Below, in pieces: positions 2,240 to 63,253 of a stretch of 64,000 bases of DNA. Under the pieces are notes generated by a model, which was not told where the DNA came from, ran no database searches, and was given only the letters and a program-made list of their open reading frames with translations. This DNA comes from Bolinopsis microptera. Its lineage: Eukaryota; Ctenophora; Tentaculata; Lobata; Bolinopsidae. The stretch is from contig NC_087077.1 in assembly GCF_026151205.1 (NCBI RefSeq), positions 12,684,983 to 12,748,982 of the forward strand. Direction: 5' to 3'. How positions within the stretch are numbered: position 1 is the stretch's first letter; every line of letters begins with the position of its first letter. The position numbers were made by a program, and so were the translations under genes.

Positions 2240-33910
<31,671 letters not shown>

Positions 33911-48546: not shown

Positions 48547-49244
48547 AAGATCATGAATCACTGATTCACGGCGACAACTGCTCCACTAGAAATTCTTCAC
48601 ACCAAAATTGGCACGGCTCTGATATATGAAAGACATCGGTGTTTGTGGCGCGATGCACTGTTGGGCCGCGCATCCAATAACCCTTCTCGCAACCACATCA
48701 TTTAAATCGGTGAGATGTACCACAGGGCCACTATATACGGAAGATTGGCATAGTCAATTAGATGATGTGTTAACAGTTAATTTAGAGATACGGCAATCTT
48801 GATGTTACGTGTTACGGACGGCCACGGTTTCTTGTAAAACCAAACTAGGGTTATCGGACATTTGAGAGTTTACCCAGATTGTGAATTTTACTTGACCAAC
48901 AAACTTGAACTAGGGTCTGACAGAACTTTTGAGGGGTTCCGCGAGGCAGCCATGACTTTCGCAATTAACAAAATAAGACTACTAGTTAATAATTAAAAAT
49001 TAAATTCGGACAAAATTTACAAAAGACATTTAAACTGGTATTAGCAAAAATGAGGATCAATTTCTACCAATTTCTCCAATTAATATTTTTGTATAATCCA
49101 ACAGAAGTTGTCATTTTGTAGCTTTTGCACAATTGATCTTAACCTCTTTGCTCTTGCTTTTTCTTGTCTCTGGCCTGAAACACGGTCGGTTTAGTATAAG
49201 TTTTTTGCGTTTTAAAATCTGAAGAGAAATCAATCAAATAAATA

Positions 49245-49371
49245 TTTTGTTACAGATCAGCGAAGCTTCTACAAACAATTGTACAAGAATTAGGAAATGA
49301 TATTTTTTGTGGCATCTGCTGTAGTCTCGAACGAGAATTACTCGGTCAAGAGGATAAAGATGCGAAATAAT
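49245..49371 (-). ncRNA. H/ACA snoRNA, family L copy 1
   Basis: H box AGACTA, CAGAT/ATCTG and CTTGTACA-TGTAGAAG stems, ACA at 49250-49248. It is in the last intron of the host gene. Confidence 0.6.
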
Positions 49372-49542
49372 CCGAAACAACAAAATAATAGTCAATTTAA
49401 TTCTGGGTTTTGCAGCTGGCGAAAGGAAACTTACCGCTTACTTGAAAGAGATGTATTTTCCTTCTACCAAAACCAATCTGTTACCTGAAGCGGTTCAAGT
49501 TAAGTTGGGGTGGCTTAAGTTAAGATAGAAGTTTATCATAGG

Positions 49543-49620
49543 AGTTTCAGATAGAGCTAATATTTGGATATCATTAACATCCAGGACATTTCATAAATCG
49601 GTTAGATGTCATCATTTGTA
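49543..49620 (-). ncRNA. Box C/D snoRNA, U44-like (copy 1)
   Basis: C box ATGATGA (49615-49609), D box CTGA (49550-49547); guide ATATTAGCTCTAT to 18S as in copies 2 and 3. Confidence 0.75.
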
Positions 49621-49806
49621 AGGAATCTCTATTTGCATATTTTGAAGCAGTCACAGATTTCCAATTACCTCAGTTGTTTTTAAGGCGGAGTTTACAAGAT
49701 AGTGAGACTAGATAACTGCAAAGATCAGATTCAGTCGTTCTTTATATCTGAAATGATATCTTGCGTGTGAATTTGTTATTTAAATTTGACCATGTGAACA
49801 CTGCAG

Positions 49807-49881
49807 TTTAAATCAGATCTGTACAGATTGGCATAATCATTGCTATCAGCCGAAAGATGGTGTGATTGATCATCATTAAAT
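49807..49881 (-). ncRNA. Box C/D snoRNA, U80/snR60-like (copy 1)
   Basis: C box 49876-49870, D box 49816-49813, TTTAA/TTAAA terminal stem. Same body as copies 2-4. Confidence 0.8.
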
Positions 49882-50076
49882 ACATAGATGAAAATGAACA
49901 GTTTTAATTAAAATTTAGATTCTTACAATTGGGAAGTTTTTAGTACGTCATGTGCAGAGTCTAAGCTTGAGTAAGTCCTTTTAGCAACCTTCCCTTCCTG
50001 TAAAAGAATGTAGAGTAATTTCCCAATCTTTAAAAAGCTGCACTACGTGAACTGTGAAGGTCAGTAAGTAGGGATA

Positions 50077-50198
50077 ATTTGTTACAGATCAGCGAAGCTT
50101 CTACAAACAATTGTACAAGAATTAGGAAATGATATTTTATTTGGCATCTGCTGTAGTCTCAAACGAGAAATTCTCGCCAAAGAGGATAAAGATGCGAG
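50077..50198 (-). ncRNA. H/ACA snoRNA, family L copy 2
   Basis: H box AGACTA, the same 3' hairpin as copy 3 with the variant ATCTGTAACA end; ACA at 50082-50080. 5' part contains GGCGAGAA-TTTCTCG. Confidence 0.6.
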
Positions 50199-50409
50199 GC
50201 AAATAGACAAGACCTACAAATTACTAAGTGAGACTAACCGTTTTCTAACTTTTCAGTTGTTGTCTCTTGGTTTCACAAGAACTGTACTATAGTGGTCCCC
50301 AAGAAAATAACGCAAAAGAACAGTACACAGATCGTTCTTTTCATGTCTGAAATGGGGTTTGAATTCAGAAAGGATTGAAGCAAGCATGAAAATGTGAACA
50401 CTGGAGGTC

Positions 50410-50480
50410 AAATCAGATCTGTACAGATTGGCATAATCATTGCTATCAGCCGAAAGATGGTGTGATTGATCATCATTAAA
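50410..50480 (-). ncRNA. Box C/D snoRNA, U80/snR60-like (copy 2)
   Basis: C box 50476-50470, D box 50416-50413. Flanked by an exon (50643-50533) and its near-duplicate (50346-50241). Confidence 0.8.
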
Positions 50481-50703
50481 TGAAAAAGATGGCAAATAGA
50501 CAAGACCTACAAATTACTAAGTGAGACTAACCGTTTTCTAACTTTTCAGTTGTTGTCTCTTGGTTTCACAAGAACTGTACTATAGTGGTCCCCAAGAAAA
50601 TAACGCGAAAGAACAGTACACAGATCGTTCTATTCATGTCTGAAATGGGGGGTTTGTATTAAGAAGAGATCGTTGCAAGCATGAAAATGTGAACACTGAA
50701 GGT

Positions 50704-50776
50704 TAAATCAGATCTGTACAGATTGGCATAATCATTGCTATCAGCCGAAAGATGGTGTGATTGATCATCATTAAAT
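50704..50776 (-). ncRNA. Box C/D snoRNA, U80/snR60-like (copy 3)
   Basis: C box 50771-50765, D box 50711-50708. Identical to copy 4 between the boxes. Confidence 0.8.
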
Positions 50777-50981
50777 GAAAGAGAAAACAAGGATCAGTTT
50801 TAATTGAAATATAAATACTTACAATTGGAGAGTTTTCAAGAGTCCTAGCTTGAGTTTTGAGTCCTAGCTTGAGTTTTGAGTCCACTTCAGTAGGAATACG
50901 TCTTCTTCCTGCAAAAGAAAGAATAAATTTGCCAATCTTAAAAACGCTGCAGTTCGATCCGAACGTCAGCAAGTAGGGACA

Positions 50982-51105
50982 TTTTGTTCCAGATCAGCGA
51001 ACCTTCTACAAACAATTGTACAAGTATTAGGAAATGATTTTTGTTGTGGCATCTGCTGTAGTCTCGGACGAGAAGTTCTCGCTTTTAAGAGGATAAAGAT
51101 GCGAA
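50982..51105 (-). ncRNA. H/ACA snoRNA, family L copy 3
   Basis: H box AGACTA, 3' hairpin with GCAGAT/ATCTG lower stem and CTTGTACA-TGTAGAAG upper stem, ACA at 50987-50985. About 90% identical to the copies at 50.1 and 49.3 kb, with differences in the loop and terminal bases. Confidence 0.6.
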
Positions 51106-51284
51106 ATAACTAGACGAAATACGAAGTTTGACTTACCATTTCCTGACATCTTATATTTTCATTTAGTTGTCTCTAGGATTGACTCTCGCTAGGTATACCC
51201 AGGTACAGCTGTAGTCTTTATTTCTAAGAAATAATCAAGGTTACCACAATATTATTTTAATAAATAGGAAAACAGAACTTAATG

Positions 51285-51351
51285 AATGATTCAGGAGCTG
51301 ATTGTCTATCAATCTTTTTTCTGAGACTCTAGTCAAATATCATCATAATAT
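51285..51351 (-). ncRNA. Box C/D snoRNA (family K)
   Basis: C box ATGATGA (51346-51340), D box CTGA (51293-51290); D guide GACAATCAGCTC. Target not identified. Confidence 0.65.
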
Positions 51352-51570
51352 TAGTCAGAAGAATGTGTCTAGAAATATTTTAAATCATTACCAGTGAGTG
51401 GCAGTGAGATGAATTAGTAGCGTTGTAGCAATTTATCTTGTCCATAGAGATACCCTGATACCAATTTAGCTGCTATCTTTTATTTTACTTAGAAAAAAAC
51501 TTAAGATAGCCTGAAAATGAATTTAGAGTTAATGACAACTTAAAAAAACATAACGATCGCTAGCCTGAGA

Positions 51571-51645
51571 ATGAGTTCAGACAGTATGAATACAATAAGC
51601 ATCATGTCGCTTATATCAAGTAAGGTTTTTATACATCATTATCAT
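51571..51645 (-). ncRNA. Box C/D snoRNA (family E, copy 1)
   Basis: C box ATGATGT (51638-51632) preceded by a second ATGATAATGATG, C' ATGATGC, D box CTGA (51580-51577). Shares D guide TTCATACTGT with the copy at 59.8 kb. Confidence 0.65.
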
Positions 51646-51802
51646 TAATTTGAAGTCACTAGGTAGAGATGTATTTTAACTTACAGTAGCTCTGGTATGT
51701 ACTGAAGAGTAAAGAGGATAGCGTTAGTCTTCAACGTCAAACCTGGAATAGTTTACTAAAATATCTGGTCTCCAATATAAAACTGGGGCATTTCAACGAG
51801 AA

Positions 51803-51876
51803 ATATATCAGAAATAGAACAATGTTTATAAATCAGTAACACGAAGTTTCAAACATTTTTGCTATCATCATTAAAA
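51803..51876 (-). ncRNA. Box C/D snoRNA (family J)
   Basis: C box ATGATGA (51871-51865), D' CTGA (51836-51833), D box CTGA (51811-51808). The terminal stem is weak. Target not identified. Confidence 0.6.
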
Positions 51877-52062
51877 AAATTAAAGGTTGCGTTTGGGGTT
51901 ATATTCTCACATACCTGAAAGGGACATGGGGAAGGATTGCTTGACGTATGATGAGAATACTCCTTATCAGTCTTGATCTTTATTAGACTTGAACCTCGAA
52001 CTGGATTAGTTTCTATTAAGATCCAATCTCAAACAGAAAATTGGGAATTTCAAATAAGAGAT

Positions 52063-52147
52063 ACAGATCAGATAGAGCTAATATTGAGATATCAGTAACA
52101 TCCACGACATGACATTTCATAAATCGGTTAGATGTCATCATTTTGTT
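52063..52147 (-). ncRNA. Box C/D snoRNA, U44-like (copy 2)
   Basis: C box ATGATGA (52141-52135), extra CTGA midway, D box CTGA (52071-52068). Same ATATTAGCTCTAT guide to 18S as copies 1 and 3. Confidence 0.75.
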
Positions 52148-52308
52148 AAGAAAAGTTAATTCACAAATTCTAATTGTCATAGCAAATACCTCAGATGGTA
52201 AGGATTTCGCAACGTTTGAAGAGGTCACTTTAACCATTTCTTGATATCTGGAATGATGCCTTTATTAAGAATTCCGTTATATAAGTTTGAAAATATGACA
52301 GCTGTAGT

Positions 52309-52382
52309 TTAAATCAGATCTGTACAGATTGGCATAATCATTGCTATCAGCCGAAAGATGGTGTGATTGATCATCATTAAAT
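52309..52382 (-). ncRNA. Box C/D snoRNA, U80/snR60-like (copy 4)
   Basis: C box ATGATGA (52377-52371), D' CTGA after TTTCGG, C' ATGATTA, D box CTGA (52317-52314). The D' guide CACCATCTTTCGG is complementary to CCGAAAGAUGGUG of 28S rRNA (13 nt), the site guided by U77/U80 and snR60. The D guide (CTGTACAGAT) fits a second, more variable site. Confidence 0.8.
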
Positions 52383-52442
52383 AAAGAGATGAAAATGAAT
52401 AATTTGTATTGAAAAATATACTTACAATTGGAGAGGTTTCAG

Positions 52443-53762
52443 GGTGTCTTCCACGAACAGTTTATGGTGTACTTAAGAATGACTTAAGTACAAATTTAAG
52501 TACAACCCTTCGTTTGTCGTCCACGAACTGAGTCTTAAGTACAAATTTTTACTTAAGTCGCATGATTTAAGTTCCTACTTAAATATTTAAGTACGACTTT
52601 GGGAGTTAAACTTAGCGTGCACTTAAAGTTGCGTTAGCCTCCATATATGGTGCGTGTTGGAAGCGTAATTGTAATCGATACTTACTTAAGCCCCAAATTT
52701 ACTTAAGAGTGGACTTAAATCAGGGAGATTTAAGTAAAAAGTTAAGACCAGTCCAAACCTCACTTAAGCTGTACTTAAGTCGAACTTAAATGTAAAATCG
52801 GATTTTGTGATAACTAAAAATAGTGATTGAGGAACAGTAAACAGTTTCGAGGGTTTTAAAAACATATAAACCGTAAATTTGGAGTGTTTTTCAATAAGCT
52901 GAAGGTCTTAGTAACAGTTATCTCCAGTCAATATTTACATGAACGAATCAATGACACATGTTCTAGCTTCCTGTCCCAATTTCAGGGCCCCTTTTTCACT
53001 GACGTCCTCGCGATGTCTGTATCTACAGGGTAGTCCATATTCCTAGATCTGCAGTAATTATGCAGGACCATACAACTAACTATGATATTACATGCGGTGT
53101 CTTCCTGACATAATATTGCACCACCTGTCTTCTTGCAGAGACACCTAAACTTCGATTTCAGGACACCAATGGCCCTTTCTACAGTACATCTGCACTTTTT
53201 GTGTGCAACTTTGTACCGTTTCTCTTTCGGAGTGAGATTTTCTTCAAGCAGTGGAACCATTATGATTTCTCGCTGGCCGTACCCCGAATCACCAAGAAGC
53301 TAACCCTTATAGTTAGGCCCTTGGCTCTTGACAAAATCTTCGATCAAGGTCTTAACCCCACTTAATTTCCAAATGGTTGAATCATGGATACTACCGGGCC
53401 AACGCACAACAGAGTTCAGAAATCGCTCATTGATGTCACATATAACCTGACAGTTGATAGCATGTCCCTCTTCCAAATAACTGGAAATGACATAATCAAT
53501 AATACTAATAGAATCTGCCTGGGTGCGCTCAATTTGATTCCTACTTGCTATCACACCATTGGTTAGTGTGACCTGCGTTACCTCAGTCACGTGACAGTTA
53601 AGTACTCTGCATGATACCCGTTCGTGGACGACAGGTTTGTCCTAAATTTGTGTTTGCTTAAGTGTCTCTAGTTTCGTGGACAGCAGAAATTGTCGTACTT
53701 AAGCTAAGTGCGAACTTAGCTTAAGTTCAAAAAAGTTAAGTACAAGTTTCGTGGAGGAGGCC
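52443..53762 (-). mobile_element. PIF/Harbinger transposon inserted in a host-gene exon
   Basis: 1320 bp. Terminal inverted repeats GGTGTCTTCCACGAA (left) and GGCCTCCTCCACGAA (read in from the right). Target duplication CAG at 52440-52442 and 53763-53765, fitting the CWG preference of some animal Harbingers. Subterminal regions are dense in ACTTAAG and AAGTAC motifs in both orientations. It codes a broken transposase. Acceptor ACGTTTCAG is just upstream and donor CCAATT|GTAAGT just downstream, so it sits in an exon. Confidence 0.85.
52982..53590 (-). pseudogene. Harbinger (HARBI1-like) transposase, disrupted
   Basis: Two frames in the same register separated by one in-frame stop (TAG at 53299-53297). 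First part: INCQVICDINERFLN with the first catalytic Asp and WPGSIHDSTIWKLSG. After the stop comes LLGDSGYGQ (second Asp), then KKCRCTVERAIGVLKSKFRC with the catalytic Glu and NIIVSCMVLHNYC. The N-terminal part is missing or diverged, and no Myb-like partner is present, so it is dead. Confidence 0.8.
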
Positions 53763-53893
53763 CAGGTACATCGTGCTCAATGTCAATTGTCAGCTCACTG
53801 AAACGTAACATAAATTAAACAAAGTTACAAGCAAATAATGCGATCTAACAATATGAGCAATAAATTATGCAGATTATACTTATAACTTATTTA

Positions 53894-54022
53894 ATTTGTA
53901 GTTCACTAGCGTAACAAACACACAGATATGCGGGTTGTTTAAAAAGTGATCAGGTTCCTCTCGCTAGAGTATACAACCCAGCACCCATTATTCTAGGTGC
54001 CAAGTGAAAAGCTCTAGCGTTA
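53894..54022 (-). ncRNA. H/ACA snoRNA
   Basis: 5' hairpin with CGCTAGAG/CTCTAGCG base stem, pocket, and GCACC/GGTGC upper stem; H box AGAGGA (53961-53956); 3' hairpin with TCAC/GTGA base, pocket and AAACAA/TTTGTT upper stem; ACA (53899-53897). All canonical elements are in order and spacing. Target unknown. Confidence 0.7.
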
Positions 54023-54230
54023 ATTAGTTAATTAATTACGCTGCTAAGTTTACTGAGAATGAGACTTACTCTTCAGGTGGAAATAAAATGATTTAGCGTC
54101 TCGTTGGTGGAAACATCGGATCTAGCATACATAGTTAGTCATGAAGCTAATTCTCCTATTCTCACAGATCCTGTGAAATACCACTATTAGAACATGTTAA
54201 GGTTAAACAGCCGGTTGTATGCTGTGCTTT

Positions 54231-54299
54231 GGTTTCAGAATCACTAAATATCAACATTATTTTGTCTGATGACCGTCGTGATGTAATTCATCATTAAAT
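54231..54299 (-). ncRNA. Box C/D snoRNA, U35/snR73-like (copy 1)
   Basis: C box 54294-54288, D box 54238-54235; same body as copy 2. Confidence 0.7.
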
Positions 54300-54476
54300 A
54301 TCCTAAAACTAAGATAAAAATAGTTATAATATCCAAATGAGTTAATACCTATAATCCTTCTTCTTGACATCTCTCCAGAGTATAGAGTTCGTTATGAGAC
54401 GACACTTAACAAAGCCTGAAAATAGGTACAGTGAATATAAACAGGTAATAAATGAGACAGAGAGGTAAGATATTAT

Positions 54477-54545
54477 CACACTCAGATACTATCTAGTGTA
54501 CATAACCACACGGTTGTTCAGGTACAAGTTAACATCACCGTGTTT
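54477..54545 (-). ncRNA. Box C/D snoRNA (family I, copy 1)
   Basis: C box GTGATGT (54538-54532), D box CTGA (54485-54482). Two differences from copy 2, near the loop (CACACGG against CACACAA). Confidence 0.7.
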
Positions 54546-54781
54546 TGTAATATATATAAGATTTGACAGTGAAGAATGTTGACTAACCTGATATCTATTA
54601 CATGTATTATCTATTCCGTCATCAGATTAACATCCATCTTCTCGGCTACACTTTGTTTAGAATTGGATGAGCTCAATCGCAGTCTTACACCATCCAGTAT
54701 GTTGCGTTCGAGGCTGATCTGATAAGAAAATCAGTGTTAGTTTTGGCGGCCGATATTGAAGCATAAAAATACTTTCGCATC

Positions 54782-54850
54782 ACAAATCAGAACTTCTTAG
54801 AGGATTGACTGTCATAGATTTATCCAGATCGAGTTGATCATCATTTGTAA
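54782..54850 (-). ncRNA. Box C/D snoRNA, U61-like (copy 1)
   Basis: C box 54844-54838, D box 54790-54787; guide identical to copies 2 and 3. ACAAATG/CATTTGTG-type terminal stem. Confidence 0.8.
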
Positions 54851-55028
54851 GGTATGTAAGGAGTGCCAAAATAAAATGAGAACACATACCTATACTGAGA
54901 AGAGGGTGACTACTGGCTGGCATCAACTATGGCATCAACTCTTCTTTTCAACGAACTTCCAACAAAACTGAAGCGTTATTAAAGTAAGAGACTTTGTTAG
55001 TGACAACAATAAAGTAACACAAGTGTTA

Positions 55029-55098
55029 CAAATCAGAATCACTAAATATCAACATTATTTTGTCTGATGACCGTCGTGATGTAATTCATCATTTAAAA
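55029..55098 (-). ncRNA. Box C/D snoRNA, U35/snR73-like (copy 2)
   Basis: C box 55092-55086, D box 55036-55033. Identical in the 28S guide to copies 1 and 3. Confidence 0.7.
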
Positions 55099-55295
55099 AA
55101 CTTAAAACCAGCAGAAAACGTATAAAGCACGGGTAGGGGCCGAGCACCCTTCCCCGATATAAAGTTGTAATAACGAACCTGTTGAACAAGTGACCCAAGT
55201 AGTAGTAGACGATAGAGCCGTACTTTACAGACTGAAATAAATAGGGCTATTTAGAATAAAGAAGGAAATGTGGTTAGTTACTGGTTCGATTTTTA

Positions 55296-55368
55296 AGTAA
55301 ATCAGTAAAAAATTAGAGTTTATTTCGCTGTCAGCAAGTTGTCCACGAAATATTATCATCATTTTGAA
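55296..55368 (-). ncRNA. Box C/D snoRNA, U36/snR47-like (copy 1)
   Basis: C box 55362-55356, D box 55305-55302. Same 18S guide as the copy at 56.9 kb; the bodies are identical from C to D. Confidence 0.8.
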
Positions 55369-55577
55369 TTGAAAAATATTTTACTGTCTAAGAAGTGATT
55401 TTTTTCTTACCTAATAACTGGCAGTGCAGAATCGAGCCACATTACTTTTCAGGTGTAAGAGAAGGGAATGAGAACACCTGTACCTCGCCTGAAAATGACA
55501 GAGTCCGGTTAGTTTCAGTATTCTTAAGGGGAACCAAATAGCTGACCATCTACAGAATCCAAGAAAATTTCGGATAA

Positions 55578-55648
55578 CAGCACTCAGATACTATCTAGTG
55601 TACATAACCACACAATTGTTCAGGTACAAGTTAACATCACCGTGTTTT
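55578..55648 (-). ncRNA. Box C/D snoRNA (family I, copy 2)
   Basis: C box GTGATGT (55640-55634), D' TGA in TACCTGAAC, D box CTGA (55587-55584); AACAC/GTGCT-type terminal stem. D guide CACTAGATAGTAT; target not identified. Confidence 0.7.
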
Positions 55649-55884
55649 GTAATAAATATATAAGATTTGACAGTGAATACTGTTGACTTACCTCTGAACT
55701 GCACATGAGACTGCTCCAGTCAAGTTAGTAATTAACAGATGAAGTTAATGTTGATCCACGAAAATTGGCTGCTAATTTGAGACTCGTATCTGATACCGTG
55801 TTTTGGTGTCGTGATTGCTGGCCTGAAATAGAATTCAATAGAAGTATTGGCGGTGTTTAACTTAGCTGAGAAATATTGTCGATA

Positions 55885-55952
55885 TCAAATCAGAACTTCT
55901 TAGAGGATTGACTGTCATAGATTTATCCAGATCGAGTTGATCATCATTTGTA
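55885..55952 (-). ncRNA. Box C/D snoRNA, U61-like (copy 2)
   Basis: C box 55947-55941, D box 55893-55890. The guide is identical to the copies at 56.2 and 54.8 kb. The flanking exon is a clear duplicate of the one next to the 56.2-kb copy. Confidence 0.8.
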
Positions 55953-56223
55953 TGGTCCGTAAAGCGTGCCAAAAAAAGATCTGACAGTGAATACTGAACT
56001 TACCTCTGAACTGCAAAAGAGACTGCTCCAGTAAGCTAGTAGTAAGCAGATGTAGTAAGTTAGAAGTAAGTGTTGACTGTTAATCCACGAAGAGTGGCTG
56101 CTAATTTGAAATTCCTATCTGAATTCTGATACCGTGTTTTGGTGTCGTGATTGCTGGCCTGAAATAGAATTCAATGTAAGTATAAATGGCGGTGTTTAAC
56201 TTGGCTGAAAAATATTGTCGATA

Positions 56224-56291
56224 TCAAATCAGAACTTCTTAGAGGATTGACTGTCATAGTTTTATCCAGATCGAGTTGATCATCATTTGTA
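56224..56291 (-). ncRNA. Box C/D snoRNA, U61-like (copy 3)
   Basis: C box ATGATGA (56286-56280), D box CTGA (56232-56229), AAATC-type terminal stem. The D guide CCTCTAAGAAGTT is complementary to AACUUCUUAGAGG of 18S rRNA (13 nt); the fifth position is a uridine, as for U61 (18S U1442 human). Confidence 0.8.
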
Positions 56292-56615
56292 TTGTTCGTA
56301 AACAGTAAACACGTGCCACAATAATACGAGAACACAGAGCAGACTTACTTTAGCTGTTAGTGGGTTCAGGAAGAAAGGTCTAGTTTCAGCTCGGAATTCT
56401 CCACAGACACAACTGAAGAGTTATTAAAGTATAAGAGATTTTGTTAATCTTATATTTGATCCTTCGAACAGCTGTTGAGCAATGAAACGCAAACATAATC
56501 TTAGCAAAATGAATATATTTCTTTTATCTTCAGCATTTAATCAGTCACATAATCTGAGAATATCAAAGGTTAGAGATTTTGTTAGTGATAAAACATAAAA
56601 TGTAAAAAAGTCTTG

Positions 56616-56686
56616 CGTATCAGAATCACTAAATATCAACAAGGTTTTGTCTGATGACCGTCGTGATGTAATTCATCATTTAAAAA
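56616..56686 (-). ncRNA. Box C/D snoRNA, U35/snR73-like (copy 3)
   Basis: C box ATGATGA (56679-56673), D box CTGA (56623-56620). The 5' guide TCACGACGGTC matches GACCGUCGUGA of 28S rRNA (11 nt), near the cytidine guided by U35 and snR73. Box D' would be the degenerate CAGA, so site assignment is less sure. Confidence 0.7.
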
Positions 56687-56875
56687 CAAGCAGAAATATA
56701 AACCAGGGTGAGGGGTTGAACCCTCCCTCCGGACAAAGTGGCAATAACGAACCTGTTCAATGAATTAGCTTCTTCCAGATATTCAGTTGGAGCTTTTCAT
56801 ACAAACTGAAACGTAAAGGGCTATTTAAAGTCAAGAAAGAGTCAAGGGTTGCTAAGGTGATGATTTTATTTTTAA

Positions 56876-56947
56876 ATAGATCAGTAAAAAATTAGAGTTT
56901 ATTTCGCTGTCAGCAAGTTGTCCACGAAATATTATCATCATTTCGAA
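56876..56947 (-). ncRNA. Box C/D snoRNA, U36/snR47-like (copy 2)
   Basis: C box ATGATGA (56941-56935), D' CTGA after ACAACTTG, D box CTGA (56884-56881). The D guide ACTCTAATTTTTT is complementary to AAAAAAUUAGAGU of 18S rRNA (13 nt), pointing at the adenosine modified by U36 (A668 human) and snR47 (A619 yeast). Confidence 0.8.
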
Positions 56948-57140
56948 TTGAAGTGTAATATGTTTTACAACTTAGAAAAAAGTATTTTCTTACCTTATAA
57001 TTGCAAGAATCAAGTCACTAGACGTATCCGCTGTCAAGGCTAGGAAGTAGGTGCAGTGCGAACCAAACTCACCTGAAAACAACAGACTCCAGTTAGTATT
57101 AGATTGTAAAGGAACCAAAATTATATTAACAGATTTCAAG

Positions 57141-57263
57141 ATATGTTCGGATTTACAGACGCTTTGCCGACAATTTCTCAACAGAGCCTTGTAAAGCCGG
57201 ATATCTTTACCACCATTAAATTATCACTACAGCTTATGTTACTAAGTGTACTCAACAGGTGGG
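57141..57263 (-). ncRNA. H/ACA snoRNA candidate, homologous to the one at 61.1 kb
   Basis: 5' hairpin closed by CCACC/GGTGG, linker with AAAGATAT in the H-box place, 3' hairpin with CGGCTTTACA/TGTAAATCCG lower stem (one internal mismatch), and ACA (57146-57144) just after it. Intron 57320-57073. Confidence 0.6.
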
Positions 57264-57449
57264 TGCACAAGTATTTACTGGTAAATAGGTTACTGAAAAA
57301 GTAATTTAAGACACTTACCACTACAAAAATTAATATGCTCGCCCCGCAGTTTCATCATTTTCCTCTGAAGTTCAGTGTATTATCAGTTTGTTTTTTTAAC
57401 TTCCACAGATCTTTCTCCGTTAGCCCTGCAAAAAGGATAATGTAATAAT

Positions 57450-57823
57450 TTCAGGTAAAGTGAATGAGGACTACATGGTCATTTCAAGCTACGAAATGTG
57501 TGAAGACCAATAACGGGGCGGTCGTAAGAACAACCGTCCACAAAGAATGGTCATCACGAAACACGAGCCCCAAAAACTGGGGCTCGGTCAGAGGGTTGTG
57601 TAGCACGTCCATGACTCGAACACTACCTATACGCTACACAATAATGCAGCGGACACACGCTCACTTGCACCCTGTACGAGCAGTACAATGTACATTGTAC
57701 ACGAGTGTACAGTGTACATTGTACACGCATGTGCAGGACCAGGAGAGGGTTTGTGTGTCAGGTAGCGGCCCTAAGGAGACGTGCAAGGAGGGGGAACTGA
57801 ACATTATGTGAAACAACTTACTG
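57450..57823 (-). other. Host intron with GC-rich structured segment, no canonical snoRNA
   Basis: Contains a perfect hairpin CGAGCCCC-AGTTTTT-GGGGCTCG (57562-57584) and nested palindromes built of GTACAATGTACATTGTAC (57686-57736). It is higher in GC than the other introns. I find no C/D pair; it may be another kind of structured RNA or an old insert. Confidence 0.45.
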
Positions 57824-57988
57824 TTATGATGTGACTTTTGGTGCAGATTATGTCCGAAGCAGCTGCTTATCACACCGCATCTGAGTCTCCTAAAGAGATA
57901 CGCTGAGTTAGATGTCATACTCTAGAGAGCAAAATGTCAACAAAAAGGTTATGTTTATAACTTCCAATAAATTTGTAGAGATATCTTA

Positions 57989-59195
57989 CAGAGGCACATA
58001 TTAGGTGCGGTAAAGAAATCGAAATTATGCGGTACCGCACCCGACTATAAAGGTAAAATGTGCGGTAAGGTGCGGTAAATTTTTACCAATTATGCGGCAA
58101 ATGTGCGGCGATTTTTTCGAAATTTGTGCGGGAATTGTGCAGTTTTCTTTTGCATTTTCTCAAGGACTTTGGAAATTCTAAACGTATAACCGCCGCTCTT
58201 ATCAAAAATAGGTATGTTTATGTGTTACTGAGGGTGTAGTTCTTTACTAAGACCATGATTGAACATATATTGAGATTCAGTTATCTGAGAACAGTGACTT
58301 GATCTGGTAAAGATCAGGAGACAGTTATTTGAAGACGCCTCTTGATAGAGTCGATCAGATCCCATGCGTGATCGCAAATATGTGACACGCTTGTTGGCAT
58401 TGATCGTCAGTACTTGTGAACCATTTGATCCAAGATCCATTAAGCCCACTATAAAGCCAACGCTACAACGAATAGAGGGAGCTCATTACCCTTTACACCT
58501 ACTTCTTCTATTATCACCTACTTTGGATCATGGAATCTACTCAACAACTTCAACCCCCTGGAATCAGATGATGTGGTGAAGTTACGAATGATAACTGATA
58601 CACTATAATCGAAGTACGGTAACGACGAGGGTTTTATAACGGCCTGGGTCACGGTCCTGAAAGGGCCTGGGTAACGGTCCCGAAAGGGCCTGGGTAACGG
58701 TCCCGAAAGGGCCTGGGTCACGGTCCCGAAAGGGCCTGGATCACGTGGTAACCGAGTCACGTGGCCTAGGCATGAGTCCCAAAAGGGCCTGGGTCACGGT
58801 CCCGAAAGGGCCTGGGTCAGGGTCCCGAAAGGGCCTGGGTCAGGGTCCCGAAAGGGCCTGGGTCACGTGGTAACTGGGTCACGTGGCCTATGTATGAGTT
58901 CCAAAAGGGCCTGGGTCACGGTCCCGAAAGGGCCTGGGTCAGGGTCCCGAAAGGGCCTGAGTCACGGTCCTAAAAGGGCCCGACTTTTAACATATTTTGG
59001 TTTTTACACTCGAAAATCTGAACGCGAAAATTTCAAAATTATGCGAAATTACGCGGAAAATGCTAGATTATGCGGAAATATGCAGAAAATTACAAAATGT
59101 GCGGAAATGTGCGGAAAACAATAAAATATGCGGAAATGTGCGTAAAACGGTAAATTGTGCGATCCCGCACCCATCGCACCTAATATGTGCCTCTG
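57989..59195. mobile_element. Non-autonomous hAT element
   Basis: 1207 bp with perfect terminal inverted repeats starting CAGAGGCACATATTAGGTGC at both ends and a perfect 8-bp target duplication ATATCTTA (57981-57988 and 59196-59203), diagnostic of hAT transposition. Subterminal regions are rich in TGCGGTAA and TGCGGAAA motifs. The centre is a GGGTCACGGTCCCGAAAGGG minisatellite (58640-58980). No transposase. It lies in a host-gene intron. Confidence 0.9.
58641..58980. repeat. 23-bp minisatellite inside the hAT element
   Basis: About 14 units of GGGTCACGGTCCCGAAAGGGCCT with CAGG and AACG variants. Two units carry GTCACGTGGTAAC blocks, giving a longer repeat of about 155 bp. Confidence 0.9.
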
Positions 59196-59298
59196 ATATC
59201 TTAGAGCACTATAAGTTCGTGATAAGACATCCCCAGAGAAAAGTTACACAAACCTCCGACCCCAAAACGAGGCTGGAGGAGAGGTGACTAGACTGTCT

Positions 59299-59428
59299 TA
59301 ATGTCACACGAATGTAACGCATTAAGCGGGGTTCTGCGCTTCATGCTGACTGATTCGTGTATAATTCAGTATATTATTATTTACCCTGATTAATTAATGA
59401 CTAATTAAACGAACCGGATAATTAAGGA
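59299..59428 (-). ncRNA. H/ACA snoRNA candidate beside the hAT insertion
   Basis: 5' hairpin with TTAATTA/TAATTAA stem, H box ATAATA, then a textbook 3' hairpin: ACACGAAT/ATTCGTGT lower stem, an open pocket, AAGCG/CGCTT upper stem, and ACA (59304-59302) one base after the stem. The hAT element sits about 100 bp downstream in the same intron. Confidence 0.65.
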
Positions 59429-59531
59429 TCTTTCACCAACTTTGTCAGAAACAATTCACAGCCAGCTAAACCTGCAGGGACAGAATTTTAGTACCAATGT
59501 AACTAAGGGCTGAAAGGTGTTAATTTAGAGA

Positions 59532-59613
59532 GATGTTCAGACAAGAATGAAACTTGCAGTAAGTCAACATAAAGTGTTACCTTTTATGTTTTCGCAAAAC
59601 GTCATCATTTAAA
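59532..59613 (-). ncRNA. Box C/D snoRNA (family F)
   Basis: C box ATGATGA (59608-59602), D box CTGA (59540-59537). D guide CAAGTTTCATTCTTGT. Target not identified. In intron 59656-59510. Confidence 0.7.
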
Positions 59614-59801
59614 ATTATGTAGAAATTGAAGAGCCCTAAAACGTCAAACTCACCTAGTCTATATTCATGGGCATGTAGTTCTGACAATTACGCCTTCTCA
59701 GTTCTCACGTTACGTGACTCTGGTCGTTGTGTCGCAGAAACTGTAAGGGTTGTAACGGTTAGGGGAGATGATCTGACAGGGTCTGTTTAGAGACACAGTT
59801 T

Positions 59802-59878
59802 TGATTTCAGACAGTATGAATACTAAAAGCATCATGTTGCTTTATCATTATTATAAAGTGTTATACATCATTAAACAT
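59802..59878 (-). ncRNA. Box C/D snoRNA (family E, copy 2)
   Basis: C box ATGATGT (59871-59865), inner ATGATGC as C', D box CTGA (59810-59807). Shares CATACTGTCTGA and the inner block with the copy at 51571-51645. Target not identified. Confidence 0.65.
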
Positions 59879-60069
59879 TATCTCAAACGAATATTTAGTT
59901 TCGAAAATCAAAATAGGACTTGACCGACCTGGTATAACTATTGAAGGAATGCGGTTGGAATCAGGAGCTTGTTTTTTGAGAACTTGTCATGGCTCTAGTT
60001 CGTAAAAATTCTGAAACAAAATTATTTATATTTCTGCACAATATGAGTTGAAAAGTTGTGTTGTTAGCA

Positions 60070-60149
60070 GATTATCAGATAGAGCTAATATTGAGATATC
60101 ATTAACATCCACGACACTTCATAAATCGGTTAGTGGTCATCACGTTTAG
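60070..60149 (-). ncRNA. Box C/D snoRNA, U44-like (copy 3)
   Basis: C box GTGATGA (60143-60137), D box CTGA (60078-60075). The guide before box D, TATTAGCTCTAT, is complementary to UAGAGCUAAUA of 18S rRNA; the fifth base upstream of box D points at the adenosine methylated by U44 (18S A166 in human numbering). Confidence 0.75.
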
Positions 60150-60304
60150 AGTTGAATTAAAATTGGTAAACAGAAATTTTGTCATTTTCTTACCACTTTG
60201 AAGAGTTTAGCTGTAGAGCCTGATGTTTTTTTATGGTCAACTATCTGAAGAAGTAAAATTTTAAAAATAACTGTGGATGATCAAGACGTTCAAATTTTAA
60301 TATA

Positions 60305-60403
60305 GAGTATCAGTATTGAATAACATAATCAAGAGGTGAAGAGATTAAAATAACTTTAACTCAACAATTCTTTCATAACTAAGACAATTGTCATCATTTA
60401 AAA
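60305..60403 (-). ncRNA. Box C/D snoRNA (family N)
   Basis: C box ATGATGA (60397-60391), D box CTGA (60313-60310), AAAT/ATTT-rich terminal stem. It is unusually long (about 95 nt) for this cluster and has no clear D'/C' pair. Target unknown. A decayed paralogue is at 60815-60910. Confidence 0.65.
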
Positions 60404-60565
60404 ATATTACGGGATTGATCGAAAATTTAACAAAATCTACCTTGAGAAAAGAAATATCCACATCTAGCGACTAGCACAGTCTGGTATTACAAGTTCCACA
60501 CACTGAAAAGATTAAATATTTAAATATATTGTAGCAGAGAACATTTAACGAATTTAGAGATCACA

Positions 60566-60631
60566 TAATATCAGTAATAGACAAATGACAGCACTATTTG
60601 CTCAGTCGGGGAATCTACTCATCATAAAATA
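60566..60631 (-). ncRNA. Box C/D snoRNA (family M)
   Basis: C box ATGATGA (60625-60619), D' box CTGA after TTCCCCGA (60605-60602), D box CTGA (60574-60571). Short and canonical. Target not identified. In intron 60676-60505. Confidence 0.75.
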
Positions 60632-60814
60632 TAAAGATTCCACCCCCATCGCAGACTGTTCAAATTCCAACATTACCTGTTGAAAGAGATTTGAAGTAGA
60701 TGTGTCGAGCAAGTTGCACAATATCAGTTAACGAATTCCATCTGTGCTGCGTCTGAAATATTGTCGAATTTAAAATTCTGAGCAAAGGGAAAGTTTTCTA
60801 AATTCATTTAATAA

Positions 60815-60910
60815 AGAGTCAGTATTGCAGAATATAATCAAGAGGTGAAGAGATTAAAATAACTTTAACTCAACAATTCTCGCATTACTAAAACCTGTCT
60901 TCGTGTAAAA
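60815..60910 (-). pseudogene. Decayed copy of C/D snoRNA family N
   Basis: Body identical in long stretches to the snoRNA at 60305-60403 (GTTGAGTTAAAGTTATTTTA, TCTCTTCACCTCTTGATTAT) and it keeps the D box CTGA (60822-60819). The C box has become GTAATGC, so it should not form a snoRNP. Confidence 0.6.
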
Positions 60911-61082
60911 TTACTTTCAAAATAGGAGAATGATGCAGACTTAAGGATAGGGCTTACCATTTGGGAAGAAAGCAAACACTCCTCGTCCACTGTCCAACTC
61001 GTAACCTGAGGAAGATTGCTTATCAGTGATTGACACACCTTCGAGAAAACAACAACAAGATAACACAAACATAACCACGAAT

Positions 61083-61216
61083 GAATGTCTGGAATTGCAG
61101 ACGCTTAGCCGGAGAAAATACCGACGAAGCCTTAAATAGCCTAGTCACTGTCTCACCACAAAGTAATATCACCAGCGCTAAAGAGCCTGGTGCACTTAAC
61201 TGGGTGAAGAAGGTAT
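61083..61216 (-). ncRNA. H/ACA snoRNA candidate, homologous to the one at 57.2 kb
   Basis: 5' hairpin with CACC/GGTG base and CACCAG/CTGGTG upper stem, H-box-like AGACAG, 3' hairpin, and ACA at 61088-61086. The segment GGCTAAGCGTCTGCAA matches GGCAAAGCGTCTGTAA at 57.2 kb, so the 3' pocket is shared. Lies in intron 61242-61008. Confidence 0.55.
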
Positions 61217-61386
61217 TAGAACTAAAGAAGGCAGTATCTTACCATTTATTTCTTGTAGGGTAAGAGGATCGAGAGAGTAGCAGTGGATTGATCAGGGTGG
61301 ATGTGATTTGTGAACCACATTTCCGTTATCTGATGGAAGAAAAGTCTTAGAAATCTGGGAACTATAAGTTAAGCTATATTCTTCGA

Positions 61387-61461
61387 ATTGATCAGATTGT
61401 TGTTTGGCATCAATATAATCAGCCGGCAATTCCTATCAAAGATTCTAACTCATCATCGAAA
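61387..61461 (-). ncRNA. Box C/D snoRNA (family P)
   Basis: C box ATGATGA (61456-61450), D box CTGA (61395-61392), D' box CTGA after GCCGG, C' TTGATGC. Target not identified; the D guide holds GCCAAAC, which could pair with a GUUUGGC segment. One copy only. Confidence 0.75.
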
Positions 61462-61610
61462 AAGGATTGTTAAGAAATCAACATACCTGATTCTTTAAGA
61501 CAAGTGTTCGAGTCCGAGAGACATCTGCGTGGTTTCTTAGATGATATCTGAAATTAGGACAGTTATAAAAAGAGCATTAATTTATAATAGTTAAATTTAG
61601 TTTAATGAAT

Positions 61611-61691
61611 TGGTCATCAGATAGGAGCGAAAGAATGCAGTAAATCGACATTATCAGTTTCAGTTGAACTATGTTATCATCACTTTTGACC
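61611..61691 (-). ncRNA. Box C/D snoRNA (family O)
   Basis: C box GTGATGA at 61683-61677, D box CTGA at 61620-61617, internal D' candidates CTGA in CAACTGAAACTGATAA. A perfect terminal stem GGTCA/TGACC closes it. Target not identified. Sits in intron 61732-61549. Confidence 0.75.
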
Positions 61692-62026
61692 GCAATTATT
61701 GACTCTATCTAAGTAAATAAAATGGAATTACCTTTGAGTGCTGAGAAAACGACTGGGAACGAGCGAAGAACTTCAGGCTTTCAGGACTGCTGCAAATTTG
61801 ATGAGAGTTCCAAGAGACGGGAAGTGTTGGTTGTTAGCATAATAAGAGCAGGTTATATTGGCTCAGAATTATGATTCACATTTTCATTCAGTTCAGTGTC
61901 AAATTTCTTAATAATCTTGATAGTTGATACAGGGATTAGGCTAGTTGGTACAGGGATTAGGGTAGTTCCGAGAGGACAAATGAAACGACTTATTATTTGT
62001 TAAAACTGAAATAATTTAATCTCAAA

Positions 62027-63253
62027 TCAATAGAAGAATCCGAGAATTTTGCCTCCAGTGTGTTTCCGCCTTGCTTCTTCGTGATCCATAATTCCGGAAG
62101 ACGTCGTCAGAACGAGTTTTCTGCAAATGGGAATGAAGTGAGCAAGGGTATGGGCTATCATTATTATCAAAGAGCACTGCTGAGTTCTCGGTTATACATA
62201 ATTCCAGTTCGAACATGCCACGGAAGCAGTGTCTGATGTTACAAAACCAATAGTTAAAAGCAACATCTGGTTGCTTTTTGGGAATATGAATCTGGACTTT
62301 TCAACATTAACCCTTAAAGCTCCGCTCTTACCTCAAGTCCCCACAGGGATAGACAAGAAAGTAAGTGTGAGAATGAACTTACCCGAACTGACGAGAAGGA
62401 AGCAGATTGGTTGTCCACTTTTCGATATCAGTGACACACACGTCGAACCTTGGACTGATAACTCCGCACTTGTTTAATCGACCATTTAACATAACGACAA
62501 TCTTGCCGGCTCTGTGGTCATCAACTACTTCGAACTCATCGATGTAACCTGTGAGAGGAGCCTGTCAGACGACTTGATTGTGAGCTGAAGTGTGACTGAA
62601 CTCTCAAATAGCCAAAATATCATCAATCAGAGGACTGAGATGTAAAATTGGCGTCATTTCCGAGAGACTGTTTTGGAGGAAAGGGGTATCCCTTGAAGTT
62701 AATAATTTCTTACCAGTAACATGAGAATAAGCTGGTACTAGTCCAGACTCAGTGCTCAATCATATCAGCAACAACTAACAATGGGTGCCAAAAATAACTT
62801 GAGTTGTTGCTGATTTGTGTTAACAGGCCTGATTAACATAAATAGCAACGAATCTACAAGTTCATTTTGGTCCAAAGTTTCTTCAAAGAACTTTTTCAAG
62901 CTGTGGAATAAAACCAACATAAGACTTGGAGTAGTCAAAGTTATTTTAATAGATGCACAATGCACACCTAAAGACTTTCATGCGATTTTTGCTTCAAAAA
63001 CATCCCAAGATTTTCTTTGGGGTAAATGAATAACGGATAAAAAGGGAAAGCAAATCGATGCAACACTATAATTTTAGATACGGAAACTAAAAACAGACAA
63101 ACAGAGCCAACAAAACGTACCGTGTTTCATCATAACAGTTAGAAATTTGATGATAACTTTAGAGCTGGGTCTGATAAGGACCTGTCGCTTGCCACGCTTC
63201 TCTGCGTTATAAATCGACTTCAGAGCGTCGTTCAACACATCCATTCGAACCAT
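62027..63253 (-). CDS. RPS15A: 40S ribosomal protein S15a (uS8)
   Basis: Small-subunit ribosomal protein uS8, which binds the central domain of 18S rRNA. Three coding exons: 63253-63121 ([20 protein letters not shown]..), 62548-62383 ([20 protein letters not shown].., ending LLPSRQFG) and 62120-62027 ([20 protein letters not shown] then [10 protein letters not shown], stop TGA). Phases 1 and 2 match. About 130 aa, the normal family length; complete and intact. The ATG has good context (CATCACCATGG). Its two introns hold a candidate C/D RNA, a candidate H/ACA RNA and a 13-bp stem-loop. Confidence 0.96.
62234..62344 (-). ncRNA. Possible H/ACA-type RNA in RPS15A intron
   Basis: GGACTT/AAGTCC hairpin, AGATTCATA linker, then a hairpin with CCAA/TTGG base and a perfect AAAAGCAAC-CAGAT-GTTGCTTTT top, then ACA (62239-62237). 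H and ACA boxes are not ideal. Confidence 0.35.
62560..62632 (-). ncRNA. Possible box C/D snoRNA in RPS15A intron
   Basis: C-box-like TTGATGA (62626-62620, first base off consensus) and D box CTGA (62568-62565) 52 nt apart, with a short CTG/CAG closing stem. Target unknown. Confidence 0.4.
62763..62818 (-). ncRNA. Perfect 13-bp stem-loop in RPS15A intron
   Basis: ATCAGCAACAACT and AGTTGTTGCTGAT are exact inverted copies separated by about 25 nt. It could be a precursor hairpin or a splicing structure; no family recognised. Confidence 0.4.

What the first reader, a model, noticed from the sequence alone, without database searches (positions are those of the whole stretch)
48960..61990. Dense snoRNA factory: about 33 C/D and H/ACA genes in one non-coding host
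Minus-strand introns each hold one unit with canonical RTGATGA and CTGA boxes closed by short terminal stems, or H and ACA boxes with paired hairpins. I count 26 C/D copies in 14 families, one decayed copy and seven H/ACA candidates, all in one strand and one exon-intron series. Known animal UHG/GAS5-type hosts carry around ten, so this is unusually large, and it mixes both classes.
Basis: partly seen in the sequence, partly recalled or inferred. Interest (0 to 1): 0.92.

Follow-up and report, generated by a model that had tools for sequence, protein, structure and literature searches.

The report
Comb-jelly snoRNA factory gene
A comb jelly appears to keep about 33 small guide RNAs for chemically marking its ribosomes, one per intron, in a single gene that seems to make no protein; the kind of gene is known, but this one is unusually large and mixed, and it sits in a very early animal branch.

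Summary
The minus strand at about 61790-49000 reads as a spliced, apparently non-coding snoRNA host gene of the ctenophore Bolinopsis microptera. Of 32 clean introns (median 184 nt), 26 hold one box C/D unit each (14 families), one holds a decayed copy and five hold H/ACA-like units; a TE-split intron holds one more, strong H/ACA fold. Longest spliced ORF: 55 aa (shuffles 64).
In 23 of 26 cases the D box ends 62-70 nt before the 3' splice site. In 18 paralogue pairs snoRNA bodies are 96% alike, flanks 52-53%, next exons 41%, unrelated sequence 32%. Guides pair with rRNA above shuffles; one has a perfect 14-bp match to the genome's own 18S.
The kind is known: UHG/GAS5-type hosts. New, as far as my searches show: the ctenophore case, its many rRNA-guide families with block duplication, and at least three more dense clusters in the same genome, one mostly a single tandem family. 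Expression is untested.

The parts
49000..61790 (-). predicted non-coding snoRNA host gene (32 clean introns in three blocks, two TE-split intervals); both ends, and the exon ends next to the TE-split intervals, are arbitrary
   Evidence: splice-site series, median exon 79, median intron 184, longest spliced ORF 55 aa vs shuffle mean 64
61617..61683 (-). [not shown]
   Evidence: Rfam RF00309 56.7 bits, above gathering; guides of 9 and 14 nt (1 GU) to recalled 28S core
61392..61456 (-). C/D family B, snR77-like, intron 2
   Evidence: D' guide 10 nt with one GU to 18S, recalled and own
61083..61207 (-). H/ACA-like unit, intron 3
   Evidence: z -3.29
60811..60894 (-). decayed copy of family F, intron 4
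   Evidence: 88% to F, no C box
60571..60625 (-). C/D family E, intron 5
60310..60397 (-). C/D family F, intron 6
60075..60143 (-). C/D family G copy 1, intron 7
   Evidence: D guide 11 nt to own 18S
59807..59871 (-). C/D family H copy 1 (SNORD41-like), intron 8
   Evidence: Rfam 26.5 bits E 0.25
59537..59608 (-). C/D family I, intron 9
   Evidence: perfect 14-nt D guide to own 18S
57989..59195 (.). repetitive element, many genomic copies, splits interval 10
57141..57275 (-). H/ACA-like unit, intron 11
   Evidence: z -2.66
56881..56941 (-). C/D family J copy 1, intron 12
   Evidence: 13-nt D guide to own 18S
56620..56679 (-). C/D family K copy 1, intron 13
   Evidence: 11-nt guide to recalled 28S
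56440..56573 (.). short dispersed repeat inserted in intron 13, 12-bp target duplication, adds 138 nt
56229..56286 (-). C/D family L copy 1 (U61-like), intron 14
   Evidence: Rfam 24.5 bits; D guide to own 18S, 12 Watson-Crick pairs, 13 with one GU
55890..55947 (-). C/D family L copy 2, intron 15
55584..55640 (-). C/D family M copy 1, intron 16
   Evidence: 95 nt to 3' splice site
55302..55362 (-). C/D family J copy 2, intron 17
   Evidence: identical to copy 1
55033..55092 (-). C/D family K copy 2, intron 18
54787..54844 (-). C/D family L copy 3, intron 19
54482..54538 (-). C/D family M copy 2, intron 20
54235..54294 (-). C/D family K copy 3, intron 21
53894..54023 (-). H/ACA snoRNA with two hairpins and internal pockets, intron 22
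   Evidence: MFE -41, z -3.95
52440..53763 (.). Harbinger-type element (DDE_Tnp_4) inserted in intron 22
   Evidence: Pfam PF13359 on 53641-53300, multicopy
52314..52377 (-). C/D family N copy 1 (Me28S-Am982-like), intron 23
   Evidence: Rfam 35.6 bits E 0.0082; 13-nt guide to recalled 28S
52068..52141 (-). C/D family G copy 2, intron 24
51808..51871 (-). C/D family O, intron 25
   Evidence: 12 nt to an own 28S fragment
51577..51639 (-). C/D family H copy 2, intron 26
51291..51346 (-). C/D family P (SNORD52-like), intron 27
   Evidence: 10 nt to an own 28S fragment
50982..51105 (-). H/ACA-like family, copy 1, intron 28
50708..50771 (-). C/D family N copy 2, intron 29
   Evidence: identical body
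50413..50476 (-). C/D family N copy 3, intron 30
   Evidence: identical body
50077..50200 (-). H/ACA-like family, copy 2, intron 31
49813..49876 (-). C/D family N copy 4, intron 32
   Evidence: identical body
49547..49615 (-). C/D family G copy 3, intron 33
49245..49368 (-). H/ACA-like family, copy 3, intron 34
62027..63253 (-). RPS15A coding region with two introns, immediately upstream of the host; the name is recalled from its translation, no family search was run on it
   Evidence: read from sequence, splice sites

Best explanation
This is a UHG/GAS5-type snoRNA host gene of the ctenophore Bolinopsis microptera. RNA polymerase II makes one long transcript from about 61790 to about 49000 (inferred). 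Its short exons are spliced together into a throw-away RNA (inferred), and each excised intron is trimmed to one snoRNA (inferred). C/D proteins assemble on the unit while the intron is in the spliceosome, because the D box lies a fixed ~66 nt before the 3' splice site (spacing shown, coupling inferred). The C/D units guide 2'-O-methylation of 18S and 28S rRNA (pairing shown for most families, activity inferred); the H/ACA units would guide pseudouridylation (inferred). The gene grew by duplicating exon-intron blocks. Copies are kept nearly identical in the snoRNA body by selection, conversion or both, most simply for dosage.
For: 22 RTGATGA-CTGA units on the host strand vs 0 on the other and 0.38 in shuffles. 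D box to 3' splice site 62-70 nt in 23 of 26; sd 2.7 without the two outliers, against sd 10.1 for 5' splice site to C box over all 26. A blind acceptor score puts 16 of 26 best acceptors at 61-71 nt vs 6.3% of 5000 random positions; 15 of these 16 are the acceptors that I used, one lies inside the repeat in intron 13. That intron is the 207-nt outlier; it holds a repeat insertion with a 12-bp target duplication, and without its 138 nt the distance is 69. Paralogue bodies 95.7%, flanks 53% and 52%, next exon 41%, unrelated 32% (18 pairs in 7 families). Guides: against own 18S, 4 of 14 families have at least 11 Watson-Crick pairs next to a D/D' box (200 shuffles: mean 0.07, maximum 1), family I with 14 pairs where own 18S differs from the recalled vertebrate type; against recalled rRNA core, 9 of 14 have at least 9 (100 shuffles: mean 1.25, maximum 3). 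No ORF above shuffles. Species from a protein 100% identical over 76% of its length, on a contig of the same length as G000:C6.
Against: No RNA evidence at all. Fetched archaeal rRNA gave no enrichment (at least 9: 2 of 14 vs shuffled 1.14). Family E pairs with recalled 18S but not with own 18S (7 nt). Own 28S was found only as degraded fragments; scanned against them, families A, F, H, K and N did not show the pairings expected from the recalled core, and the recalled 28S stretch that A and N should pair with has no exact match anywhere in the assembly, so these targets rest on recalled or Rfam-consensus sequence. In 10 of 26 introns the blind best acceptor lies outside 61-71 nt, and in 8 of them it is not the acceptor that I used. 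H/ACA calls are weak except intron 22; my scripted H/ACA finder missed introns 3, 11 and 31 and also reported hits in six C/D introns.
Confidence: 0.93

Rival explanations
1. The host is not a separate gene: the snoRNA introns lie in a long 3' extension, or a downstream cistron, of the RPSA-RPS15A transcript, resolved by polyadenylation or trans-splicing.
For: RPSA stop to RPS15A ATG is about 180 nt and RPS15A stop to the first snoRNA intron about 295 nt, same strand. The first host exon is preceded by an acceptor-like TTTGCAG ending at 61790 (it scored below the listing limit of 6), with no donor scoring above 5.5 between RPS15A and 61731.
Against: A poly(A)-signal-like ATTAAA follows the RPS15A stop. 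The C3 array lies downstream of an RRM-like reading frame on the same strand, not of a ribosomal-protein gene (judged by eye). No RNA data.
Confidence: 0.2
2. Copies are alike because of ongoing gene conversion among them, with little selection on copy number.
For: Family N bodies are identical in all 6 pairs; a high rate of conversion is thought likely for SNORD115/116 (PMC11028025, passages).
Against: Conversion tracts would need to stop at the snoRNA edges in nearly all pairs, while flanks are 28-86% alike. G and H copies have diverged to 75-90%.
Confidence: 0.3
3. The units are dead relics or chance motifs.
For: One copy (intron 4) is decayed; Rfam at its gathering score names only one unit.
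Against: Shuffles, phase, body-versus-flank conservation and own-18S pairing.
Confidence: 0.03

Closest known systems
UHG/SNHG1 and GAS5-type non-coding snoRNA hosts (vertebrates)
   Same: one snoRNA per short intron, no conserved ORF, rRNA guides (recalled); [quoted passage not shown]
   Different: about 33 units here against about 8-10 (recalled); many within-gene duplicates; C/D and H/ACA together; ctenophore
Drosophila Uhg1 (16 snoRNAs; PMC4430873, passages)
   Same: non-coding host dedicated to snoRNAs that act on 18S and 28S rRNA
   Different: about half the number of units
SNORD115/SNORD116 tandem arrays (22 + 44 human copies; PMC7917289, passages)
   Same: many C/D copies multiplied by cis duplication
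   Different: [quoted passage not shown] here 14 families in phase with the 3' splice site, most with rRNA guides. The C2 array of this genome resembles them more.

Membership tests
box C/D snoRNA | C box RUGAUGA and D box CUGA at 50-110 nt, above chance | tested here: met
   26 units; 22 exact vs 0.38 in shuffles
box C/D snoRNA | guide next to D or D' complementary to rRNA | tested here: met
   as a set: 9 of 14 families on recalled core, 4 of 14 on own 18S at 11 or more pairs; the other families fell below those limits, and no intact own 28S was found
box C/D snoRNA | terminal stem closing the kink-turn | tested here: inconclusive
   1-6 bp, several with scores near zero
H/ACA snoRNA | hairpin - H box - hairpin - ACA with internal pockets | tested here: inconclusive
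   clear in intron 22; partial in introns 3, 11, 28, 31, 34; no ACA in interval 10
UHG/GAS5-type host | spliced host without conserved ORF | tested here: met
   32 introns with GT at the start (intron 24 written two bases off) and AG at the end; longest ORF 55 aa vs shuffle mean 64. Splicing itself and exon conservation between species were not tested
UHG/GAS5-type host | one snoRNA per intron | tested here: met
   32 of 32 clean introns carry one unit or remnant: 26 C/D, 1 decayed, 5 H/ACA-like
UHG/GAS5-type host | D box at a fixed distance from the 3' splice site | tested here: met
   23 of 26 at 62-70 nt
UHG/GAS5-type host | 5'-TOP promoter, NMD-sensitive spliced RNA, mature snoRNAs released | not testable with these tools
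   needs RNA data
SNORD115/116-type array | one or two families repeated in tandem, no rRNA target (recalled) | tested here: not met
   14 C/D families, 9 of them with rRNA guides at 9 or more pairs

The most novel reading that the evidence does not exclude
Ctenophores may package much of their rRNA-modification guide set into a few giant dedicated non-coding host genes, each in strict phase with the 3' splice site and enlarged by block duplication, with some guides amplified to tens of copies in tandem. That would place splicing-coupled C/D snoRNP assembly and large host arrays at or near the root of animals, with dosage rather than imprinting as the driver.
Probability: 0.5. Interest if true: 0.7.

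Novelty: new member of a known kind. Interest (0 to 1): 0.56.

Why it matters
I found no description of ctenophore snoRNA genes or hosts: of the 9 papers with both 'ctenophore' and 'snoRNA' in the library none is about them by title and abstract opening; in the two that I searched by passage, one mentions snoRNAs as background and one predicts them with snoSeeker only to label small-RNA clusters. The locus makes two questions directly testable: whether the vertebrate-type fixed spacing, and hence splicing-coupled snoRNP assembly, dates to the base of animals, and whether within-gene guide duplicates are kept for dosage. Family I shows a guide that fits its own 18S where this differs from the recalled vertebrate type.

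Tried and rejected
A strict terminal-stem filter for C/D units found only 6 candidates in the whole window and was dropped. Eukaryotic rRNA was sought in IMG/VR and GTDB contigs; in what I checked only a 28S scrap (L001) and archaeal rRNA turned up (of 18 GTDB loci 5 were checked with Rfam, L002 was not checked). Archaeal rRNA gave no guide enrichment. A scripted H/ACA finder proved unspecific. The SNORA38-like hit at 45615-45471 (30.4 bits, gathering 60) lies on the strand opposite to a plus-strand reading frame and is not counted as part of the host. Two RTGATGA at 57557 and 57358 are not counted (TE-split interval; exon). The C/D-like 62626-62565 in an RPS15A intron is out of phase (16 nt to the acceptor) and not counted. 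A whole-region genome search mostly returned transposons, so TE-free pieces were searched instead. Exact patterns for the 28S stretch that families A and N should target found nothing in the assembly.

Corrections to my own steps: one search used an acceptor at 56554 for intron 13 that lies inside the inserted repeat; 56413, as, is the better reading. It also wrote the intron-24 donor as 52190 (GT is at 52188). For introns 8 and 9 the first acceptors that I picked gave 24 and 27 nt (then 22 of 26 lay at 62-75 nt); I changed them to 66 and 65 nt after seeing the rule, and the blind score prefers the same two. An earlier count said 24 copies for the C2 array and 'first 100 places'; recounted it is 25 copies, and the number of places listed was not counted.
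Full report
ORGANISM. The window is G000:C6:12684983-12748982. A protein of the window (31842-33302, minus; EFF-AFF fusogen by Pfam) is 100% identical over 76% of its length to Bolinopsis microptera LOC134816802, listed on a contig of 20,932,313 bases, which is the length of C6. So this is a ctenophore.

OBSERVATION. On the minus strand from about 61790 to 49000 a regular series of short exons and introns is read: 32 introns with clean boundaries, median 184 nt, and 35 exons in three blocks, median 79 nt, the outer ends of the blocks being arbitrary. Two intervals are split by multicopy elements (59195-57989, and 53763-52440 with a Harbinger-type transposase frame). 26 introns hold one C/D unit each, in 14 families: N has four copies, G, K and L three each, H, J and M two each, and A, B, E, F, I, O, P one each. 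Intron 4 holds a decayed F copy. Introns 3, 11, 28, 31 and 34 hold H/ACA-like units, and the TE-split intron 22 holds the best H/ACA fold. 22 RTGATGA-CTGA units stand on this strand against 0 on the other and 0.38 in shuffles.

NON-CODING. The longest ORF of the spliced exons is 55 aa; shuffled sequence gives 64 on average. I had no second species, so exon conservation between species is untested.

PHASE. The distance from the D box to the 3' splice site is 62-70 nt in 23 of 26 introns, median 66. My first reading, made before the rule was seen, had 22 of 26 at 62-75 nt. A blind acceptor score finds its best acceptor at 61-71 nt in 16 of 26, against 6.3% of 5000 random positions. One of the 16 lies inside the repeat in intron 13; of the other 10 introns, two have the best score at the acceptor that I used (75 and 95 nt) and eight elsewhere. 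The two outliers are intron 16 (95 nt), whose acceptor region resembles that of H/ACA intron 11 (read), and intron 13 (207 nt), where a dispersed repeat with a 12-bp target duplication was inserted; the empty site gives 69 nt. [quoted passage not shown]

CONSERVATION. In 18 pairs of copies from 7 families snoRNA bodies are 95.7% identical, the 40 nt upstream 53%, the 60 nt downstream 52%, the next exon 41%, and unrelated stretches 32%. The duplications are thus old and the bodies are held constant. The order J-K-L-L-M-J-K-L-M-K along 56941-54235 shows block duplication.

TARGETS. The pairs include 28S sites for A, N, K, P and 18S sites for G, J, L, E, M. I then found rDNA of this genome on C5. 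On its best 18S, which lacks the 3' end because of a gap, families I (14), J (13), L (12) and G (11) pair perfectly next to the D box; at 11 pairs or more this is 4 of 14 against 0.07 in shuffles, maximum 1. That 18S is only about 80% identical to the recalled core in BLAST pieces, and degraded copies stand beside it, so it may not be the expressed copy; that family I fits it perfectly, having at most 8 pairs on the recalled sequence, speaks for it. O (12) and P (10) match fragments of own 28S. Against: E fits recalled but not own 18S; B has only 10 nt with one GU; M has two competing short matches (recalled 18S, own 28S fragment); A, F, H, K and N show no expected pairing in the degraded own 28S; the recalled 28S stretch for A and N has no exact match in the assembly; archaeal rRNA shows no enrichment.

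GENOME CONTEXT. A search with TE-free pieces found copies of A and B in tandem on C3 and of I on C9. The surroundings are dense too: on C3 20 in-phase C/D candidates on one strand and 0 on the other, within 15813560-15824504, and on C9 12 against 1. Rfam recognises in four of those pieces, below gathering score, SNORA73-, SNORD14- (twice), SNORD53-, SNORD57- and SNORD18-like units, and above it snR60 and SNORA16. A genome-wide in-phase pattern has 329 matches against 60 for the reversed pattern; only part of the places is listed (to C3:15818390), and a number of them are plainly repeats or coding sequence rather than snoRNAs. Among those listed, 25 lie at C2:14388243-14414421 in three groups and are close variants of one family, many about 250 nt apart; a 1.2-kb piece shows four copies in exon-intron-like units with a guide like snoZ122 (28.6 bits, E 0.1, gathering 38).

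MECHANISM. Shown: splice-site series, phase, conservation of bodies, guide pairing. Inferred: transcription, splicing, release, snoRNP assembly, methylation, dosage. Start of the host: an acceptor-like site at 61790 and RPS15A about 295 nt upstream of the first donor leave open whether it has its own promoter.

NOVELTY. The host is a member of the UHG/GAS5 kind. What I have not found in print is a ctenophore host: the library search for 'ctenophore' with 'snorna' gave 9 papers, none on this by title and abstract opening, and passages of two do not describe one; the listings of two further searches show none by title. Most subscription papers are not in that library. That no other host carries as many rRNA-guide families is my impression, not a searched claim.

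Noticed in passing
G000:C2:14388243-14414421 (part read as L083): Array of close variants of one C/D family, snoZ122-like guide, units about 250 nt apart in three groups; 25 exact pattern hits listed, so the true copy number may be higher.
   Followed up: partly
G000:C3:15813560-15824504 (L070, L073) and G000:C9:4297681-4311717 (L072, L076, L078): Two further dense snoRNA host regions, with SNORD14- and SNORA73-like units on C3 and a SNORA16 unit on C9.
   Followed up: partly
G000:C1:14607864-14611444: Five in-phase C/D pattern hits within 3.6 kb, probably another multi-snoRNA host.
   Followed up: no
L057-L060 (C4, C3, C1, C9): Dispersed elements that share a common 5' flank and the first part of the intron-28/31/34 H/ACA unit but lack its ACA end; look like snoRNA-derived retroelements.
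   Followed up: no
G000:C6:12750782-12750913 (L056, L071): A copy (93%) of the same H/ACA unit, intact to its ACA, lies about 1.8 kb beyond the window's end, upstream of the RPSA exons read there.
   Followed up: no
window:62626-62565 and 62295-62165, minus: RPS15A introns hold a C/D-like pair out of phase and a weak H/ACA-like fold (z -1.71).
   Followed up: partly
window:45615-45471, minus: SNORA38-like hit (30.4 bits, E 0.011, gathering 60) antisense to a plus-strand reading frame.
   Followed up: no
window:31842-33302, minus: EFF-AFF cell-cell fusogen gene (Pfam E 4e-39); five relatives found, two of them named as ctenophore proteins.
   Followed up: no
G000:C5:2299000-2312902: rDNA stretch with one good 18S and degraded 18S/28S copies before a 5-kb gap; the exact 28S patterns tried found no other rDNA.
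   Followed up: partly
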